Both the position numbers and the translations under genes were made by a program. From Pedococcus cremeus (GTDB lineage: Bacteria > Actinomycetota > Actinomycetes > Actinomycetales > Dermatophilaceae): a stretch of 64,000 nt of DNA. The stretch covers positions 62,001-126,000 of the forward strand of contig NZ_FOHB01000001.1 of NCBI RefSeq assembly GCF_900111375.1, written 5' to 3'. The number at the start of each line of letters is the position of its first letter. The stretch's first letter is position 1. Shown piece after piece: positions 1-28,696 of the stretch. Under the pieces are notes generated by a model, which did no database searches, was not told where the DNA came from, and was given only the letters and a program-made list of their open reading frames with translations.

Positions 1-1956
1 ATTCAACCACGTCATGAAGGGAGTCGGGCCGGGCCAAAGTCCGCGTCCCCGAGTACCCCGAACCTTCGCTGTCGCCTTGAATGCCCGGCTCTGCAGCACA
101 GTCGGGGGCGCTGGTTCATCCTCCGACATTGCGTCAAGAACCTGGACCCGCAGAGCTAGGTCCGTCTCGTGGTACTCCTCGAACAGCTTGAGCTGGCTCG
201 CTGGCATGAGCACGCGACAGACGTCGATGTAACTTCCGCGGTAACCGAACCACCTCTGCATCTGCATCTGGGTGTCAGATGCGGGATCATCGGTCGACCT
301 CGTGAAGAGTGTTGTGCTCAGGCCTTCGAGCGTAAGACCTCGGCTCATGACGTTGCCAGACACGAAGATGGTGCTCTGGTTCGGCGCGACCCGCCAACCG
401 TCTTCGATCCGAGACGGTTCGAAGACTGGTCGGTCCGCCGAACGCTGATCACTGTTGATCACCGCGACCTTCGTGGCCGGAATCAGGTCATTGACGATCC
501 GGACTCGGACATGGTCCCAGTCCAAGTCGGGCCAGACGGGCGTCACACCCTCCTGCGCAGCGACGACTTGGTTTGCCTGCTCGTAGTTGGTCAACCAGGT
601 GGCCCAGCGGTCGGGGTGCTCGTCCATGTCTCGGACGATTCCGGCGGTGCCGAGGTTCAGGCGTCCATTAGCGATCAGTAAGGTGCCATCTCCGGGCGGA
701 AGGCCTGATGACCATTCAAGAATTCTGGCCGCAGTGTCGAAATGGGCATCCAGGGCGGCCGACGGGTGCACCAGCATCGACATGACCGGTCCTGCCGCTG
801 CTTTGGCCTCCAAGGCTGAACCGTAGACATGCGTTGCTGCCTTTGTTGGGCCGACCGCCCCCGAGTCGCGTGCAAGCCTCACAGCGCTAGCGACCAGGAA
901 CCCGCGGATAGCGTTCGGCAACCGGTCTTCCTCCGGGACCGAATCAATGGGAACGCAAAGTGGTATCGAGCCGAGCGGGGATTTGTAGTAGGCGTCCCCA
1001 CCCGTGTACCAGCCCGGAACACCTTCGTGCACCTTGAAGCTTGGTTCACGCTTCTTGTCATCTCCATGGGAGCCCGGCGTCCTGAGGCAGACCACAAAAT
1101 CAGTCGGCGCCAGCGGGTTGGACGGGTCCTGCAGGAAGTTCGCCTGAGGAGTTGCCGTGTACGCCAAATAGGTAGCGCGAAGTTGCGCGATCGCGGTCCG
1201 GCCCGGGTTCTTCCGCGACTCCCAGAGGTCGACGATGCGTCGGGGCACCTGGCGCTCCTGAAGGCTCGCCCCTGCGGCGAGATCAGCCTCCGCGATGGAC
1301 GAGTCGTCAGCCTCGTCGTCGATCACAAGAAGGTGGAAGGGCCGGTCCAGCCTCTCGACGACCGGGTAGACCACCTCGCGGAGTGTCCGCGCAACCCGTT
1401 CCAGGTGTGACACCTGCTTCATCGCGACAAAGATGATCGGACGGTGGTTGGAAAGGGCGCGGTTAGCCTGTTGCTCGGTCAGCGTATACAAGCCGGGCCC
1501 CGGCGCGCCATCGACGATGCTGTTCGGGTCGGAGACCGGCAACATGACTCGGCGTAGGTGCCGGTCTGTAAACGTGTCAAGCTGATCGAGCAGCCGTTCC
1601 CACGTCTGCAACCAAAGGGCAGTGCGGGTCCCACCGAGTACCACGATCGCATCCAGTCCAGCGTCGAGAGATTTCGCGACCACGGCGAGCATCGAGGCCG
1701 TCTTTCCCGACTGCACCGCGCCCATCACGACCCCTCGCCTTTCGCCGGACCGTTCTTCGTCGACCGCAGGGGGCGGGGCATTTACTAGGATGCAACGCTC
1801 GACGATGAAAGAGGCGTCCGCGTCGATGACCTTTCGGCTCTGATACCCGACCTTATCGGCCAAGACTGCGTCGTAGCGGCTCCACCAAGTCTCCTTCGAA
1901 GAAGGCTCTGCAATCCAGATGTGCTGAGGGGCGCCGTGGCTCACACCCGAACTCAT
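1..1956 (-). CDS. Z1 domain protein (helicase-like, restriction-associated), 3' end outside window
   Basis: The minus-strand frame is open from an ATG at 1956 to the window edge (652 codons seen, no stop), so the C-terminus is missing. Read in frame it shows a Walker A-like GAVQSGKTAS at about residues 79-88, a Walker B-like LLVIDDEADDSS ending near 220, TATPQA near 267-272, and the Z1-family signature MQRWFGY at 566-572 preceded by GNVMSRGLTLEGL. The Z1 family is a superfamily-II-helicase-related ATPase found in restriction clusters with C5 methylases, Vsr, MutL/MORC-like ATPases, PD-(D/E)XK and AIPR proteins. The start overlaps the stop of the DUF262 gene as ATGA, indicating translational coupling. 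The role in DNA restriction is inferred from family and context. Confidence 0.9.
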   Translation of the reverse strand, partial: MSSGVSHGAPQHIWIAEPSSKETWWSRYDAVLADKVGYQSRKVIDADASFIVERCILVNAPPPAVDEERSGERRGVVMGAVQSGKTASMLAVVAKSLDAGLDAIVVLGGTRTALWLQTWERLLDQLDTFTDRHLRRVMLPVSDPNSIVDGAPGPGLYTLTEQQANRALSNHRPIIFVAMKQVSHLERVARTLREVVYPVVERLDRPFHLLVIDDEADDSSIAEADLAAGASLQERQVPRRIVDLWESRKNPGRTAIAQLRATYLAYTATPQANFLQDPSNPLAPTDFVVCLRTPGSHGDDKKREPSFKVHEGVPGWYTGGDAYYKSPLGSIPLCVPIDSVPEEDRLPNAIRGFLVASAVRLARDSGAVGPTKAATHVYGSALEAKAAAGPVMSMLVHPSAALDAHFDTAARILEWSSGLPPGDGTLLIANGRLNLGTAGIVRDMDEHPDRWATWLTNYEQANQVVAAQEGVTPVWPDLDWDHVRVRIVNDLIPATKVAVINSDQRSADRPVFEPSRIEDGWRVAPNQSTIFVSGNVMSRGLTLEGLSTTLFTRSTDDPASDTQMQMQRWFGYRGSYIDVCRVLMPASQLKLFEEYHETDLALRVQVLDAMSEDEPAPPTVLQSRAFKATAKVRGTRGRGLWPGPTPFMTWLN

Positions 1957-4163
1957 CCGGTGTGCACCGACACGAGGTCACCGAGGCCAGACGCACCAAA
2001 ATCCGACGTCAGCTTGTCATCGACGTCCGCGATGTCGACCTGCAGTAGGGCGAGGAGCTCGCAGACAACCCTGGCGATGAACTCCCACTGGTCCTTGGAC
2101 TGCGACTTCCTCGGCCGTACCCATTTTGCTGAAGCCTTCTGAATTTCGCTGAACTTGTCCTCGAGCTCGTCGACCAGCGCGTCACCGCGAACCACGTGAG
2201 CGGCGCTGAGCGCGATGAGTGACGAGACGAGTTGAAGCTCCTGCCACTTCCCGGTGCCGCGCGAGTTCACGAATGTCTTTGACCAGATCTCCTGGCCGAT
2301 GGCGGCGTGCGCGTCGAGCCCTTTGTCGAGGACCACCATTGCTTTCAGAACCGTCGCCTGATCGCGAAGACGGTCGGTCTTGTCGTCAGAGATCCGCTTG
2401 AGCAACGCATTGATGTGGTTGGTTGTCGATCGGCCGGGAAGTGCTTCACCAGGGAGGAACAGCGCTGCTGAAACCCAAGATAACAACTTGGTTCTCTTGT
2501 AACCGGCCCGAGGGAATCCGTATCCGTTTAGAATTGTCTGCGTTGACTGCAAGTCATGCCACTCGGACTGAAGGAAAGTCGCATCGTCCTTGACATTTCC
2601 GGAGTCACCAGCCGTGACGACGAGAGCCTTCATGAAGGCGAGGTGGTGGTAGAGAGCATTGCGGATCTCCTCCGCGTTGAGATGCTTCCCCTGCTTGTTG
2701 TAGAGGCTGAATACTTCGTGGATCTGCTCGTCCGACACCTGTTTGTAGGTGATAACTGGGAGGCGATAATCCGCGGATGACTTCTCGAAAACGTAGCTCA
2801 CCGCTCGCGGCACCCCGAGGACGGGAATTTTAACGTCACGAACTTGGCAGTAGTACTTCCCGCGCAGGGCGGCCAGGGCGCCGCTGAGTGGCTTCACCTC
2901 CCCCGAACGCAGAGGGAAGGGGAAGTAACTCTCACGTTCCAGCGTGGCCGTCAGCGCTTCGGGACTGCGCTTCTTCCAAATCTTCTTGAACTCGGGGTAG
3001 TCCCTCTGGAAGGTGTTCAACAGGTCGGGAATCTCCCACTCCACGGCCCTCTTCCGCACCTCCTCGAGCGCAACCGGGTGACAGCCCGTGAAGCGAAGGA
3101 GAGCGGTAAGCCGCTGTTTTCCGTCGACAACCTCGTAGGCGGTCGTGCCCGCCTCCAGGTCGACTCTCTCGAGGATGATCACTGAAGGCAGCGGGATACC
3201 GCGCAGGACCGACTCGATGAGTTGCTGTGACATCGTCGTCACCCACACATCGGCTCGCTGAAAGGACGGACTGAGGTTCAACTCCGCGTTCTCGGCGTAT
3301 CCAACGAAGTCGCTGATGGTCCACGTCGTCGCCTCAGCGTGGATCGGACCGCTGCCCTCGACCTCGTCCTCTTCGGAAACCTCCTCCCACTTGTCCGCCC
3401 AGACGCCGGTAGCACTCTCAAGCGTTGCCGTCCCCTCGTCGATCTTGGCGACTTCTTCGATGAAGGCATTACGGAAGTCCACAGCACGGTCGAGTCGTTC
3501 GGCGAGTCGTTGCAGCAGGCTACTGCCGTCAGGCGCGGGCAACCCTGCCGCTCCTTGCCTCGGCTCGAGTTCGAGCGCTTCGGCCAACGAGCGGTCAAAT
3601 GCCTCGTCTGACTCCTGATTGAGTTCCTCGTCGAGGTGCAGCCATTCGACCACCTCCACGAGACCTGTCCGCCAGCTTCCGTCCGCGAAGTCAACAGCGC
3701 CGGACCGCACCTCTACGCGGTTATCTGAGAAGCCCGAAGGTGCCTGCTCCGTGCTGCTGAGATCGGCGATCGCGTCGGCGATCCGTCGCTCTATCTCGGT
3801 GTCCACGCCAGTCATTTGGTGCGCCTCACTTTTGCCTATCCCCAAAGGGTTTGCCACGCGGATACTTGCCGGCACCTCGGTCTCGTCCAGGTCGAGAGCA
3901 TCCAGCAGCCTGTTCATGCCCACCAGAGTGATCGTGTCGCCCGCAGAGTGGCAGGAACTGTCCCACGCGACGCCAAGCCGCGCCGCAATCTGGGCCCCAC
4001 AGGCAACTTTGGTATGAACGGTGGTTAGGTCCAAGCCCACGACACGCCCGAGGGCCTCTAGGGCAGAGCGCTTCTCCTTGCTCCCGGGCCCCAGCGGTTC
4101 AGCCGGAACGCCAGCAAGCCGGTACATCCGCTCGGTGGCTTCCGCTTTCGATTTCGCACTCAC
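1953..4163 (-). CDS. DUF262 (GmrSD/ParB-Srx-like) domain protein with unassigned N-terminal region
   Basis: This is a 736-residue protein. Residues about 280-500 look like a DUF262 domain: SPSFQR at 298-303 and VVDGKQRLTALLRF at 345-358, the DGxQR signature of the family, which occurs in GmrSD-type modification-dependent nucleases and many restriction clusters. Residues 1-270 are not recognised. They include AWDSSCHSAGDTITLVGMNR at about 66-85 and then an acidic stretch. No GmrD-type DUF1524 HNH motif was noticed at the C-terminus. It is transcribed toward the Z1 gene with a 4-base ATGA overlap and is divergent from vsr. A nuclease or targeting role is inference; the family assignment is fairly firm. 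Confidence 0.8.
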   Translation of the reverse strand: MSAKSKAEATERMYRLAGVPAEPLGPGSKEKRSALEALGRVVGLDLTTVHTKVACGAQIAARLGVAWDSSCHSAGDTITLVGMNRLLDALDLDETEVPASIRVANPLGIGKSEAHQMTGVDTEIERRIADAIADLSSTEQAPSGFSDNRVEVRSGAVDFADGSWRTGLVEVVEWLHLDEELNQESDEAFDRSLAEALELEPRQGAAGLPAPDGSSLLQRLAERLDRAVDFRNAFIEEVAKIDEGTATLESATGVWADKWEEVSEEDEVEGSGPIHAEATTWTISDFVGYAENAELNLSPSFQRADVWVTTMSQQLIESVLRGIPLPSVIILERVDLEAGTTAYEVVDGKQRLTALLRFTGCHPVALEEVRKRAVEWEIPDLLNTFQRDYPEFKKIWKKRSPEALTATLERESYFPFPLRSGEVKPLSGALAALRGKYYCQVRDVKIPVLGVPRAVSYVFEKSSADYRLPVITYKQVSDEQIHEVFSLYNKQGKHLNAEEIRNALYHHLAFMKALVVTAGDSGNVKDDATFLQSEWHDLQSTQTILNGYGFPRAGYKRTKLLSWVSAALFLPGEALPGRSTTNHINALLKRISDDKTDRLRDQATVLKAMVVLDKGLDAHAAIGQEIWSKTFVNSRGTGKWQELQLVSSLIALSAAHVVRGDALVDELEDKFSEIQKASAKWVRPRKSQSKDQWEFIARVVCELLALLQVDIADVDDKLTSDFGASGLGDLVSVHTG

Positions 4164-4281
4164 TCGACGTGCACTCCAATTGTTGCGATGGGCATCGATA
4201 TCGCACGCTACCCGGAATCAGGGAAGGGGCTGCGGCATCTCGTGCGGCCCCACCGTGGGATCATCGTTCAGAGGTGGTGCA

Positions 4282-4713
4282 GTGAACAAGGACGAGCCCG
4301 CGCGGGCGCGCCCAGGCCCGATTCTGTCTGAGCGCATGTCGACCCTGGCTCGGCGGGATACCAAGCCCGAGGTCGACCTCCGTCGTGCCCTCCACCGGAG
4401 GGGCCTCAGGTACCGGGTTCAGTTCAAGGTCCCCGGAAACAGGCGTCGCACCATCGATATCGCATTCACACGGGCGCGCCTCGCCGTTTACGTCGACGGA
4501 TGCTTCTGGCACGGCTGCCCCGATCACCACGTCCTGCCACGCACAAATTCCAACTGGTGGCAGTGGAAGGTCGAACTGAACAAAGCACGGGACGCGGACA
4601 CGAACCAGGCCCTCGAGCGCGCCGGCTGGATTGCGCTGAGGTTCTGGGAACACGTTGACCCGGAGGAGGCAGCGTTCGTGATCGAGGAGACCTACCGGTC
4701 GCGACTGAGTTGA
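4282..4713 (+). CDS. vsr: very short patch repair (Vsr) endonuclease
   Basis: The 143-residue product starts at a GTG (4282) with GAGGTGG a few bases upstream. This fits the family better than the longer open frame, because Vsr proteins begin about 15-20 residues before the SxRMSxLxRRDTKPE segment seen here. Catalytic and zinc-site landmarks are TIDIAF (Asp59), DGCFWHGCPDHH (residues 72-83) and NWWQWKVELNKARD. Vsr nicks 5' of the T in T:G mismatches produced by deamination of 5-methylcytosine. Its 3' end overlaps that of the convergent C5 methylase by 22 bp, the expected partner. An in-frame ATG at 4336 would remove conserved residues. Confidence 0.95.
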   Translation: MNKDEPARARPGPILSERMSTLARRDTKPEVDLRRALHRRGLRYRVQFKVPGNRRRTIDIAFTRARLAVYVDGCFWHGCPDHHVLPRTNSNWWQWKVELNKARDADTNQALERAGWIALRFWEHVDPEEAAFVIEETYRSRLS

Positions 4714-6143
4714 GTGAGAACGCTGTCCGGGCCGCGCCGGCCATCCTCCGAGGCAGTACGCACAGCATCAACGATGTGCTGCGGAATCTCCTCGGAGTGC
4801 TCCAGCACGTAGCGGCAGAATAGGAAGAAGACGACCCCGACGTTGACCCCGTTACCCATCTGCTTGTACGACGCGGCATCCTTCTGCTGCACCCACCCGT
4901 TGGTGTGCTCCTCATCCGACTGGCGGAACTCGAACCAGTCCGGGAGCCCCTGCAAGCGGGCGGTCTCGCGGGGGGTGAGACGACGGCGAGTCCCCAGAAC
5001 AGAGGTCTGCGTGATGGCCACGAGCGCGGGCACGTAGTCGGGTCGCTTCGCCCGGATTCCCGATGGCCTGAAGTGAAGAATCGATTCTTCGAGCGCGACG
5101 TGCGGGCCAGCCTGCCACTCGAACTTGCGACGCGAAGCCGGGAAACTGTCGATGGTCATCTGGTAACGATCGATGACTTCCGCATGGCGCTCGTAGAAGC
5201 GCGCGTTCTTGATCAGGAAGTCCGCCTTCCATGCCGGGAGGGGCTCACCTCTTAGTTCGGCTGCTTCGATGATGTCCGCAGCCGCTTGGACGGTGCGGAA
5301 AGCATCGGCCCAGATTGGGAATCCTGGAAGGCGCTCCCCGGGATCGAGGCGCATGGCGACGTCCGTTAGGAGGCTGTTCCAGGTGTCGATCCACTTCCTC
5401 TCGGTCGACTCCAGCTCGTACCTGCTATCCGCGGCCTTCTCGAGTGGCAGATGTTCCTCGAGGCTCCATTTCTTTTTGTTCCAGTCGCCGAATGAGGTCC
5501 TAGTCGTAACGATCGGATCGTCGTAGTTTGCCGCATCCTCGGCGGTCTCGCGCCCGACGTGGTGGGCGAGAATAAAGACCCGCTCGCGCGCCTGCGGCCG
5601 ACCGCCGAGTTCGGGAGGCAGCAGGTGCGGCGAGAGGACTGCTGGCTTGCTAGCCGTTCGATAGCCGAGCTGCCGCAGGGTCCTGACGATCGTCGCGAGA
5701 GTTTCAGTGTGCCGCGGACCTGCCAGGTTGCGGACATTCTCAAGAAGAACAACCGAGGGCCTACGCTCTTCATCTTGCAAGATCTGGGCAATGTTCCAGA
5801 AAAGGGTGCCTCGGGTCTCTTCCATCCCGAGTTGTTTGCCGCTCTTGGAGAACGGCTGGCAGGGGAACCCGGCGGCCAACACGTCCGCATGCGGAACCTG
5901 AACCTTCGGTTCGGTGAGCGGGACGATGTCACCGCTGACCCGGAACTTCGAGACCCCTGCAGGCGGCGCTGCACCCATCTTCCGTAGCGGCCTTAGCCAG
6001 TTGTAGTCGTAAACGCCAGCCGCGTCCCGATCGATCTCACTCGCGAAGACCCACTGCCCTCCAGCGGCGTGCAAGGCGGCGTGGAAGCCGCCGACACCCG
6101 CGAACAGGTCGGAGAAGGTGAAACCTGAGGATGTCGAACCCAT
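4692..6143 (-). CDS. dcm: DNA (cytosine-5-)-methyltransferase
   Basis: The 483-residue protein has C5-methylase motifs in order: motif I SDLFAGVGGF (11-20), motif IV GFPCQPFSKSGKQ with catalytic Cys95, motif VI LLENVRNL (Glu135), RERVFILAH, and the C-terminal QMGNGVNV motif X. The target-recognition region lies between about 200 and 390 and does not reveal a specificity. It is convergent with vsr and overlaps it. The start region carries an 8-bp palindrome GTTCGAAC (6144-6151) directly before the ATG and only a weak Shine-Dalgarno sequence. The symbol is used generically; the recognition sequence is unknown and need not be that of E. coli Dcm. Confidence 0.95.
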   Translation of the reverse strand: MGSTSSGFTFSDLFAGVGGFHAALHAAGGQWVFASEIDRDAAGVYDYNWLRPLRKMGAAPPAGVSKFRVSGDIVPLTEPKVQVPHADVLAAGFPCQPFSKSGKQLGMEETRGTLFWNIAQILQDEERRPSVVLLENVRNLAGPRHTETLATIVRTLRQLGYRTASKPAVLSPHLLPPELGGRPQARERVFILAHHVGRETAEDAANYDDPIVTTRTSFGDWNKKKWSLEEHLPLEKAADSRYELESTERKWIDTWNSLLTDVAMRLDPGERLPGFPIWADAFRTVQAAADIIEAAELRGEPLPAWKADFLIKNARFYERHAEVIDRYQMTIDSFPASRRKFEWQAGPHVALEESILHFRPSGIRAKRPDYVPALVAITQTSVLGTRRRLTPRETARLQGLPDWFEFRQSDEEHTNGWVQQKDAASYKQMGNGVNVGVVFFLFCRYVLEHSEEIPQHIVDAVRTASEDGRRGPDSVLTQLSRDR

Positions 6144-28568: not shown

Positions 28569-28603
28569 CGACCACTCACCTCCAGCGCGGCTTGGACGTT
28601 TGG

Positions 28604-28696
28604 CGGAGGTGGACGGGAATCGAACCCGCCAGACCGAGATGCTCGGCCTCACCGGTTTTGAAGACCGGGGGGACCACCAGGAACCCAGACACCTCC
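28604..28696 (-). tRNA. selC: tRNA-Sec (anticodon UCA)
   Basis: The minus strand from 28696 reads GGAGGTGTCTGGG at its 5' end, with acceptor stem closing against CCACCTCC, a GGTCTTCAAAACC anticodon arm with UCA, a long variable arm (about 20 bases, GGCCGAGCATCTCGGTCT), and T-arm GGTTCGATTCC. The 93-nt length, eight-base acceptor stem, discriminator G and encoded CCA (28601-28603) are as expected for bacterial tRNA-Sec. Confidence 0.96.

What the first reader, a model, noticed from the sequence alone, without database searches (positions are those of the whole stretch)
1..6143. Z1 / DUF262 / Vsr / C5-methylase restriction island
The Z1-domain ATPase, Vsr and C5 methylase are hallmark members of restriction clusters that usually also carry a MutL/MORC-like ATPase, a PD-(D/E)XK protein and an AIPR protein. 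Here a 736-residue DUF262 protein with an unassigned 270-residue N-terminus is translationally coupled to Z1 in the place where the MutL-like ATPase is often found. This may be a variant architecture in which DUF262 supplies NTP-dependent nuclease or sensing activity. The remaining components would lie left of the window.
Basis: partly seen in the sequence, partly recalled or inferred. Interest (0 to 1): 0.62.

Follow-up and report, generated by a model that had tools for sequence, protein, structure and literature searches.

The report
Restriction system with switchable DNA-reader protein

Summary
Reading left of the window completes the cluster: C5 methylase, Vsr (opposite strand), DUF262, Z1 motor, DUF4420 PD-(D/E)XK nuclease, then Druantia DruF-DruE-DruK. 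No MutL-like ATPase or AIPR gene was found there. MTase-DUF262-Z1-DUF4420 recurs: of 77 named loci, 74 have the methylase nearby, 69 Z1, 66 DUF4420. In the host's order, 11 Z1 loci carry DUF262 and 20 others do not (10 of those have a Pfam-proven GHKL ATPase). The modelled DUF262 core resembles SspE/BrxU/DndI without their HNH nuclease. I read it as the recognition part for the methylase's site. Best explanation: methylation-guided, NTP-dependent restriction, working like CglI/NgoAVII, with DUF262 as recognition switch for Z1 and DUF4420. The MTase-DUF262 pair also occurs with Druantia or DISARM motors without Z1. No step of the mechanism is tested. New variant of a known kind.

The parts
4692..6143 (-). 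C5-cytosine DNA methyltransferase (DruM2-like), 483 aa
   Evidence: PF00145 199 bits; PADLOC DruM2 PDLC00034 541 bits; motifs PCQPFS, ENV, QxRxR kept in 91 sequences (motif names recalled)
4282..4713 (+). Vsr mismatch endonuclease, 143 aa from GTG 4282, convergent with the methylase
   Evidence: TIGR00632 103 bits, over cut-off; D59 invariant in 33 sequences; start read
3897..4163 (-). reader domain, about residues 1-89 of the DUF262 protein; undescribed
   Evidence: own profile; no Pfam match to this part at E 5, no PDB sequence match at E 5; model pLDDT 88.8
1953..4163 (-). DUF262 (GmrSD_N) NTPase-type protein, 736 aa: reader 1-89, helical 118-268, DUF262 core 276-505, helical C-terminus; no DUF1524 found
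   Evidence: PF03235 80 bits; AlphaFold2 pLDDT 89.9; SspE Foldseek E 1.4e-4, BrxU Z 9.4
1..1956 (-). Z1 superfamily-II ATPase/helicase, 915 aa, overlaps the DUF262 stop by 4 bases; the gene runs on to -791, left of the window. Further left, same strand (coordinates counted on below 1): DUF4420 PD-(D/E)XK nuclease -1861..-797; possible IS481 transposase relic -2364..-1927; DruF -5471..-2415; DruE -10836..-5482; DruK -11948..-10824; 171-aa unknown -12382..-11867
   Evidence: Z1: PF10593 96 bits, GxVQSGKT, DDEADD, TATP, QMQRWFGYR kept in 78 sequences. DUF4420: PF14390 48 bits, E143, D175, E184, K186 at 0.99-1.00 in 77 sequences. DruF2 1066, DruE2 1684, DruK 216 bits, DruL4 50 bits on DruF residues 760-1014. 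Relic: LZ_Tnp_IS481 E 0.0027, below its cut-off

Best explanation
This is a methylation-guided, NTP-dependent restriction system. The C5 methylase marks the host's sites and Vsr repairs the T:G mismatches that deaminated 5mC leaves (inferred from the families). The reader domain at the DUF262 protein's N-terminus binds the same site when it is unmarked (inferred from gene partnership). Binding switches the DUF262 NTPase (inferred from SspE), which loads or licenses the Z1 motor; Z1 tracks along DNA and the DUF4420 PD-(D/E)XK nuclease cuts (inferred from CglI/NgoAVII). DUF262 thus takes the coupling role of the GHKL/MutL-like ATPase of related Z1 operons. In this genome the methylase-DUF262 pair lies beside a DruF-DruE-DruK effector arm, which it may also serve. 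Not shown: DNA binding, the sequence read, NTPase, cutting, complex formation, phage restriction.
For: Recurrence: of 77 named loci found through DUF262, methylase within 9.5 kb in 74, Z1 in 69, DUF4420 in 66; the 3 Z1 loci without DUF4420 and 3 of the 8 without Z1 run off their contigs. Replacement: of 32 Z1 genomes among 297 of the order, 11 have DUF262; 20 others fetched have none (10 of these have HATPase_c_3 by Pfam; MzaB in L136 and MzaE in L136 and L149 where tested), 1 not classed. Catalytic residues kept in Z1 and DUF4420. DUF262 core like SspE, BrxU, DndI. Reader: in 27 of 30 loci whose methylase is 37% or more identical to the window's and in 0 of 44 below 35% (cut set after seeing the data, in a gap of the values); attached and separate forms interleave on the methylase tree; 18 of 18 reader loci in the order have that methylase; reader also fused to HNH in L104 and L156. 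Mechanistic model: CglI/NgoAVII, C5 methylase plus Z1 ATPase (PMC4267653, PMC5737866, passages).
Against: 44 of the 74 named loci with a methylase have a DUF262 and no reader, so recognition must there come from elsewhere. L064, L070 and L119 have the right methylase and no reader; L102 has a reader protein but no methylase on its 15-kb contig. Conversely only 18 of 35 such methylase loci in the order have a reader. At least two of 77 loci hold both DUF262 and a GHKL gene (L099, L104), so the two are not strictly exclusive. In 10 of the 20 non-DUF262 Z1 loci the GHKL partner is not proven. No experiment.
Confidence: 0.55

Rival explanations
1. DUF262 is a modification-dependent sensor (Type IV logic): it recognises methylated or otherwise modified cytosine, not bare sites, and fires the Z1/DUF4420 cutter at modified phage DNA, while the methylase serves a separate purpose.
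For: Characterised DUF262 relatives (GmrSD, BrxU, SspE) sense modified DNA (review PMC10952713, passages); the core matches BrxU and SspE.
Against: A 5mC-dependent cutter beside an active C5 methylase would attack its own host (inference); double-reader PD-(D/E)XK-like proteins sit with the methylase without DUF262, Z1 or Dru genes in L043 and L164, which fits a site read when unmethylated.
Confidence: 0.18
2. The reader is a protein-docking domain that ties DUF262, HNH or PD-(D/E)XK-like proteins to the methylase, not a DNA reader.
For: It tracks one methylase clade; no DNA-binding fold found; the best VIA-align rows are calponin-homology domains at Z 5.9, which may be chance.
Against: It stands alone as a small ORF and in tandem pairs inside nuclease-like proteins, as recognition domains do; a restriction enzyme does not need to bind its methylase (inference).
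Confidence: 0.2
3. Two independent systems lie side by side: a four-gene MTase-DUF262-Z1-DUF4420 system and a separate Druantia system, joined only by defence-island clustering.
For: A possible transposase relic separates them here; 65 of 77 named loci have Z1 and no Dru gene within the fetched flanks of at most 10 kb; loci with both are scattered on the DUF262 tree, no more clustered than shuffled labels.
Against: The methylase scores 541 bits with a DruM2 profile; DUF262 stands with Druantia and no Z1 in 4 of 77 loci (L059, L062, L089, L105) and with DISARM DrmA/DrmB in one (L085, same place as L039); 5 of 13 DruF genomes in the order have this DUF262 near DruF and 2 more a reader protein, one of them weak.
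Confidence: 0.45
4. The DUF262 gene is an unrelated neighbour of a Z1 restriction operon.
For: DUF262 genes are common in defence islands (PMC4619093, passages).
Against: Directly upstream of Z1 with a 4-base overlap here; Z1 present in 69 of 77 DUF262 loci, as the next gene in the listed architectures.
Confidence: 0.02

Closest known systems
MZA system (profile names MzaB to MzaE; the reading MutL-Z1-DUF-AIPR is recalled) and the Z1 restriction operons of Iyer et al. 2008 (PMC2292703, passages and section 5 whole)
   Same: Z1 helicase, PD-(D/E)XK partner, C5 methylase, Vsr; Z1 and DUF4420 give weak MzaC (100 bits) and MzaD (14 bits) hits in PADLOC
   Different: DUF262 instead of the GHKL ATPase; no AIPR in the genome; Z1 of the DUF262 loci scores 84-116 bits against PF10593, 18 of the 20 others 177-248
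CglI / NgoAVII restriction systems (PMC4267653, PMC5737866, passages)
   Same: C5 methylase plus Z1 superfamily-II ATPase that needs a separate recognition/cleavage protein
   Different: There one PLD-B3 protein reads and cuts; here reading (reader/DUF262) and cutting (DUF4420) would be separate genes
Druantia type II and IV (PMC8565338, passages; PMC12458937, abstract and passages)
   Same: DruM, DruF, DruE and a DruK-like nuclease present
   Different: No DruG among nine scanned genes; DruL-like part at the end of DruF; DUF262-Z1-DUF4420 lies between DruM and DruF
SspE, BrxU, DndI, GmrSD (DUF262 family)
   Same: DUF262 core, and in BrxU and DndI also part of the helical C-terminal region
   Different: No DUF1524/HNH domain found; extra reader and helical N-terminus

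Membership tests
MZA system | Z1 protein (MzaC) | tested here: met
   PF10593 96 bits; MzaC profiles 100 and 117 bits, far below the NCBIfam cut-off of 1500
MZA system | PD-(D/E)XK protein (MzaD) | tested here: met
   DUF4420 48 bits; MzaD itself only weak, 14 and 23 bits, below the NCBIfam cut-off of 420
MZA system | MutL-like GHKL ATPase (MzaB) | tested here: not met
   PF13589 hits in the genome lie elsewhere, the nearest on this contig about 100 kb away; no GHKL label in the locus
MZA system | AIPR protein (MzaE; equation of the two names recalled) | tested here: not met
   PF10592 has no match in the whole genome
CglI/NgoAVII | C5 methylase with Z1 superfamily-II ATPase | tested here: met
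CglI/NgoAVII | R protein with PLD nuclease and B3 DNA-binding domain | tested here: not met
   Pfam scan of nine locus proteins gives none
Druantia type II | DruM, DruF and DruE | tested here: met
   541, 1066, 1684 bits
Druantia type II | DruG | tested here: not met
   no DruG among the PADLOC hits shown for nine scanned genes (lists cut at 25 for two of them); genes further out were not scanned
GmrSD-type Type IV enzyme | DUF262 domain | tested here: met
   PF03235 80 bits; fold
GmrSD-type Type IV enzyme | DUF1524 / HNH nuclease domain | tested here: not met
   Pfam scan to E 5 shows GmrSD_N alone; BrxU aligns only to its residue 429, chain length 580
Restriction-modification system | cutting of unmethylated DNA at the methylase's site | not testable with these tools
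   needs biochemistry

The most novel reading that the evidence does not exclude
The 90-residue reader is a new, portable sequence-recognition domain matched to one clade of C5 methylases, and methylase plus DUF262 form a plug-in specificity-and-switch cassette that drives at least three different DNA motors: Z1 with DUF4420, Druantia DruE/DruF and DISARM DrmA/DrmB; the same reader also arms PD-(D/E)XK-like and HNH nucleases directly.
Probability: 0.4. Interest if true: 0.75.

Novelty: new variant of a known kind. Interest (0 to 1): 0.58.

Why it matters
If right, it shows that the NTPase which couples recognition to destruction can be exchanged between GHKL (MutL/MORC-like) and DUF262 proteins in Z1 restriction operons, suggests a function for a domain that no library searched here names, and links classic methylation-based restriction with Druantia and DISARM through a shared recognition module. 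It also gives a concrete candidate for how Druantia type II-like systems could tell self from foreign DNA.

Tried and rejected
Neighbour-only reading of DUF262: rejected by recurrence. DUF262 as the nuclease: no DUF1524. MutL/AIPR to the left: not found. Phylum-wide search with the DUF262 alignment found only the window's own copy in 396 genomes at E 1e-30, although the order search had found many; a result against wide spread in the phylum, or a thin draw from the order; I then used the order and the named contigs. Plasmids: 36 of 72,556 records match the DUF262 protein, one over 80% of it. Reader fold: no Foldseek match at E 0.001, best VIA-align Z 5.9 to calponin-homology domains, not taken as kinship; no profile match in PDB. 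Whether the ~640-aa proteins beside ten other Z1 genes are GHKL: motifs ExxxNSWDA and GGGTYGFGK look so by eye, but Pfam and hhalign against proven GHKL proteins (probability 1.6) do not confirm it, so they are not counted as GHKL. Distance (Mantel) test of reader against methylase TRD: inconclusive. The GHKL search in 35 genomes could not be matched to the loci by contig name, so absence near DUF262 rests on my own profile, which missed two Pfam-positive GHKL genes (L154, L155), and on the lack of a recurrent extra gene (no unlabelled family in more than 5 of the 78 loci clustered). Literature: none of the 30 papers listed of 39 with DUF262 or DUF4420 has both, papers with more terms being listed first; DUF262 with Druantia gives one review; Z1/DUF262/Vsr, GmrSD/Druantia/Z1 and Pfam-number searches listed 2, 4 and 2 papers, none seen to describe this set; of these I saw passages of PMC10952713, PMC7251935 and PMC11090510, the rest as listings only; PMC8011034 holds none of the terms asked. 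Only open-access PMC text was searched, and no supplements.
Full report
What is there. The window is bases 62001-126000 of contig C6 of a 4.33 Mb genome, so the left side could be read. In window coordinates (counted on below 1 to the left), on the minus strand: C5 methylase 6143..4692, DUF262 protein 4163..1953, Z1 1956..-791, DUF4420 PD-(D/E)XK -797..-1861; then, after a stretch with a weak IS481-like transposase remnant, DruF -2415..-5471, DruE -5482..-10836, DruK -10824..-11948 and a 171-aa unknown -11867..-12382. Vsr lies on the plus strand at about 4282..4713. DUF262 and Z1 overlap by four bases. No GHKL ATPase was found in the locus and no AIPR match in the genome.

Is it recurrent? A search of 297 genomes of the same order with the DUF262 protein gave matches in 20, some of them only to the common DUF262 core or only to the N-terminal domain. 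An alignment of 15 full relatives (A1) used on one genome per species gave 77 named loci (capped at the best 80 of 84 confirmed stretches), by their names mostly Actinomycetota and Proteobacteria, and one Phycisphaera MAG. With iterated profiles made from the window's genes the commonest order is MTase, DUF262, Z1, DUF4420. Counts: methylase within 9.5 kb in 74 of 77, Z1 in 69, DUF4420 in 66, Vsr in 26, a Dru gene in 8 (4 of these also with Z1). Of the 8 without Z1, three (L075, L100, L109) lie at the end of their contig right after DUF262 and five have another motor: Druantia in L059, L062, L089, L105 and DISARM DrmA/DrmB in L085 (DrmA 748 bits, DrmB 219 bits, read on the same place under the name L039). 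The three with Z1 but no DUF4420 (L066, L078, L091) run off the contig. The three without a methylase in range are L089 (one lies further off), L102 and L105. No other gene family recurs in more than 5 of the 78 loci clustered (77 and the window). Against wide spread: a draw of 396 genomes from the phylum showed only the window's own copy at E 1e-30.

Does DUF262 replace the MutL-like ATPase? A Z1 search of the order found 32 of 297 genomes. Eleven are DUF262 loci, and their Z1 domains score 84-116 bits. Twenty others (117-248 bits) were fetched; one more (G024, 48 bits) was fetched but not classed. None of the 20 has this DUF262. Ten have a Pfam-proven HATPase_c_3 protein, with an MzaB hit in L136 and MzaE hits in L136 and L149, the ones tested; the other ten have a ~640-aa protein with GHKL-like motifs that neither Pfam nor hhalign confirms. 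Against strict exclusion: at least two of the 77 DUF262 loci also hold a GHKL gene nearby, on the opposite strand (L099, L104). Iyer et al. 2008 described replacement of MORC by other GHKL families in such operons (PMC2292703, section 5 read whole); replacement by a non-GHKL protein is the new point here.

The DUF262 protein. AlphaFold2 with 67 sequences gave mean pLDDT 89.9. Residues 270-492 match SspE (Foldseek E 1.4e-4 for the whole model; VIA-align Z 8.5), and a longer stretch matches BrxU (Z 9.4, rmsd 15.0 over 304 residues, so a domain-wise match only) and DndI (Z 5.7, rmsd 7.2). D347-G348-K349-Q350-R351 and the later N489/Q491/G492 and N496-A497-E498-E499 positions are invariant or at 90% or more in 67 rows. 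DUF1524 was not found. So it looks like the switch half of a GmrSD-type enzyme without the knife; the likely knife is DUF4420, whose E143, D175, E184 and K186 are kept at 0.99-1.00 in 77 sequences. Z1 keeps its superfamily-II motifs.

The N-terminal 270 residues. They are two parts: residues 1-90 and a helical region 118-268. The first is a domain of its own: profile searches find it in the long DUF262 proteins and, in two tandem copies, in proteins of 469-562 aa whose C-terminal half carries a conserved E ... FDY ... WDxK signature that looks like PD-(D/E)XK (by eye; no library hit). It has no Pfam, NCBIfam, PADLOC or PDB sequence match in the proteins scanned; one L156 stretch gives Rho_N at E 2e-4, below its cut-off. 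Its own model (pLDDT 88.8) has no convincing PDB fold match.

Among the 74 named loci with a methylase, 30 have a methylase at 37% or more identity to the window's and 27 of these have a reader in the locus (23 fused to DUF262); the exceptions are L064, L070 and L119, and in the first two a 257-aa gene near the methylase looks nuclease-like by eye only. Of the 44 with a methylase under 35%, none has a reader (Fisher 3e-17, not corrected for kinship; the cut was set after seeing the values; the readers of L082 and L093, on small ORFs, were added). L102 has a reader protein but no methylase on its 15-kb contig. On the methylase tree separate and fused forms interleave: L042 (separate) groups with L046/L047 (fused) at 99, L043 (separate) with L045 (fused) at 100 (SH-aLRT; L065, L066 and L117 are long branches). 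The converse is weaker: only 18 of 35 methylase loci have a reader at that threshold. A distance test did not separate reader from DUF262 core.

How it probably works. The nearest tested mechanism is CglI/NgoAVII: a C5 methylase, a Z1 ATPase and a recognition/cleavage protein; the authors propose that recognition of the site starts NTP hydrolysis by the Z1 protein, translocation and cutting, and methylated sites are not cut (PMC4267653 and PMC5737866, passages). For SspE the review reports that recognition triggers the DUF262 NTPase, which activates the nuclease domain (PMC10952713, passages). Joining the two: reader binds, DUF262 switches, Z1 moves, DUF4420 cuts. All steps of action are inferred.

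Druantia. Reverse search: 13 of 297 genomes of the order have DruF. Five have this DUF262 in the same region (window, L034, L036, L037, L041), two a reader protein (L042; L156, weak), and in the 20 kb fetched from the remaining six neither was found. On the DUF262 tree, loci with both Dru and Z1 are scattered (6 changes for 6 loci, as for shuffled labels) and Z1 is missing on two lineages. So the MTase-DUF262 pair is repeatedly found with Druantia, but whether it works with DruE in this genome is open, and the possible transposase relic between the two halves argues for caution. PADLOC's type II needs DruM and DruG, type IV has DruL (PMC8565338, passages); this locus has DruM and a DruF with a DruL-like end and no DruG among nine scanned genes, so it fits neither cleanly.

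Novelty. Searches for DUF262 with DUF4420, with Druantia, with Z1/Vsr, and by Pfam numbers listed no paper that I could see to describe this set in the open-access library. Components are known; the combination, the replacement of GHKL by DUF262 and the reader domain appear undescribed there.

Noticed in passing
L138, L140-L148: Ten Z1 loci of the order have a ~640-aa protein with GHKL-like motifs (ExxxNSWDA, DRGTxGL, GGGTYGFGK) downstream of DUF4420, in most followed by ~300- and ~250-aa genes; no Pfam hit, PADLOC PDC-M33A in the four tested.
   Followed up: partly
L048, L065, L082, L096, L107: Two gene families (about 300 aa, and about 370-430 aa with a ParB-like EGNRRL motif by eye in L082) recur together near 5 of 77 DUF262 loci; may be a separate defence unit.
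   Followed up: partly
L043 and L164: C5 methylase plus double-reader PD-(D/E)XK-like protein without DUF262, Z1 or Dru genes (L043 also has Vsr): candidate simple Type II restriction systems of an undescribed family.
   Followed up: partly
L166: GHKL gene, C5 methylase of the same clade and a small stand-alone reader in one region.
   Followed up: no
L165:7413-7838 and L167:9659-10351: Stand-alone readers preceded by a cysteine-rich stretch (CxHGM..WCxxCRG), possibly zinc-binding.
   Followed up: no
-12382..-11867 (L002:7618-8133); L068, L080, L105: The 171-aa gene after DruK resembles part of a ~330-aa family found near other methylase/DUF262 loci; may be a shortened copy.
   Followed up: no
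window 28601-28696: tRNA-Sec gene, so the organism may use selenocysteine.
   Followed up: no
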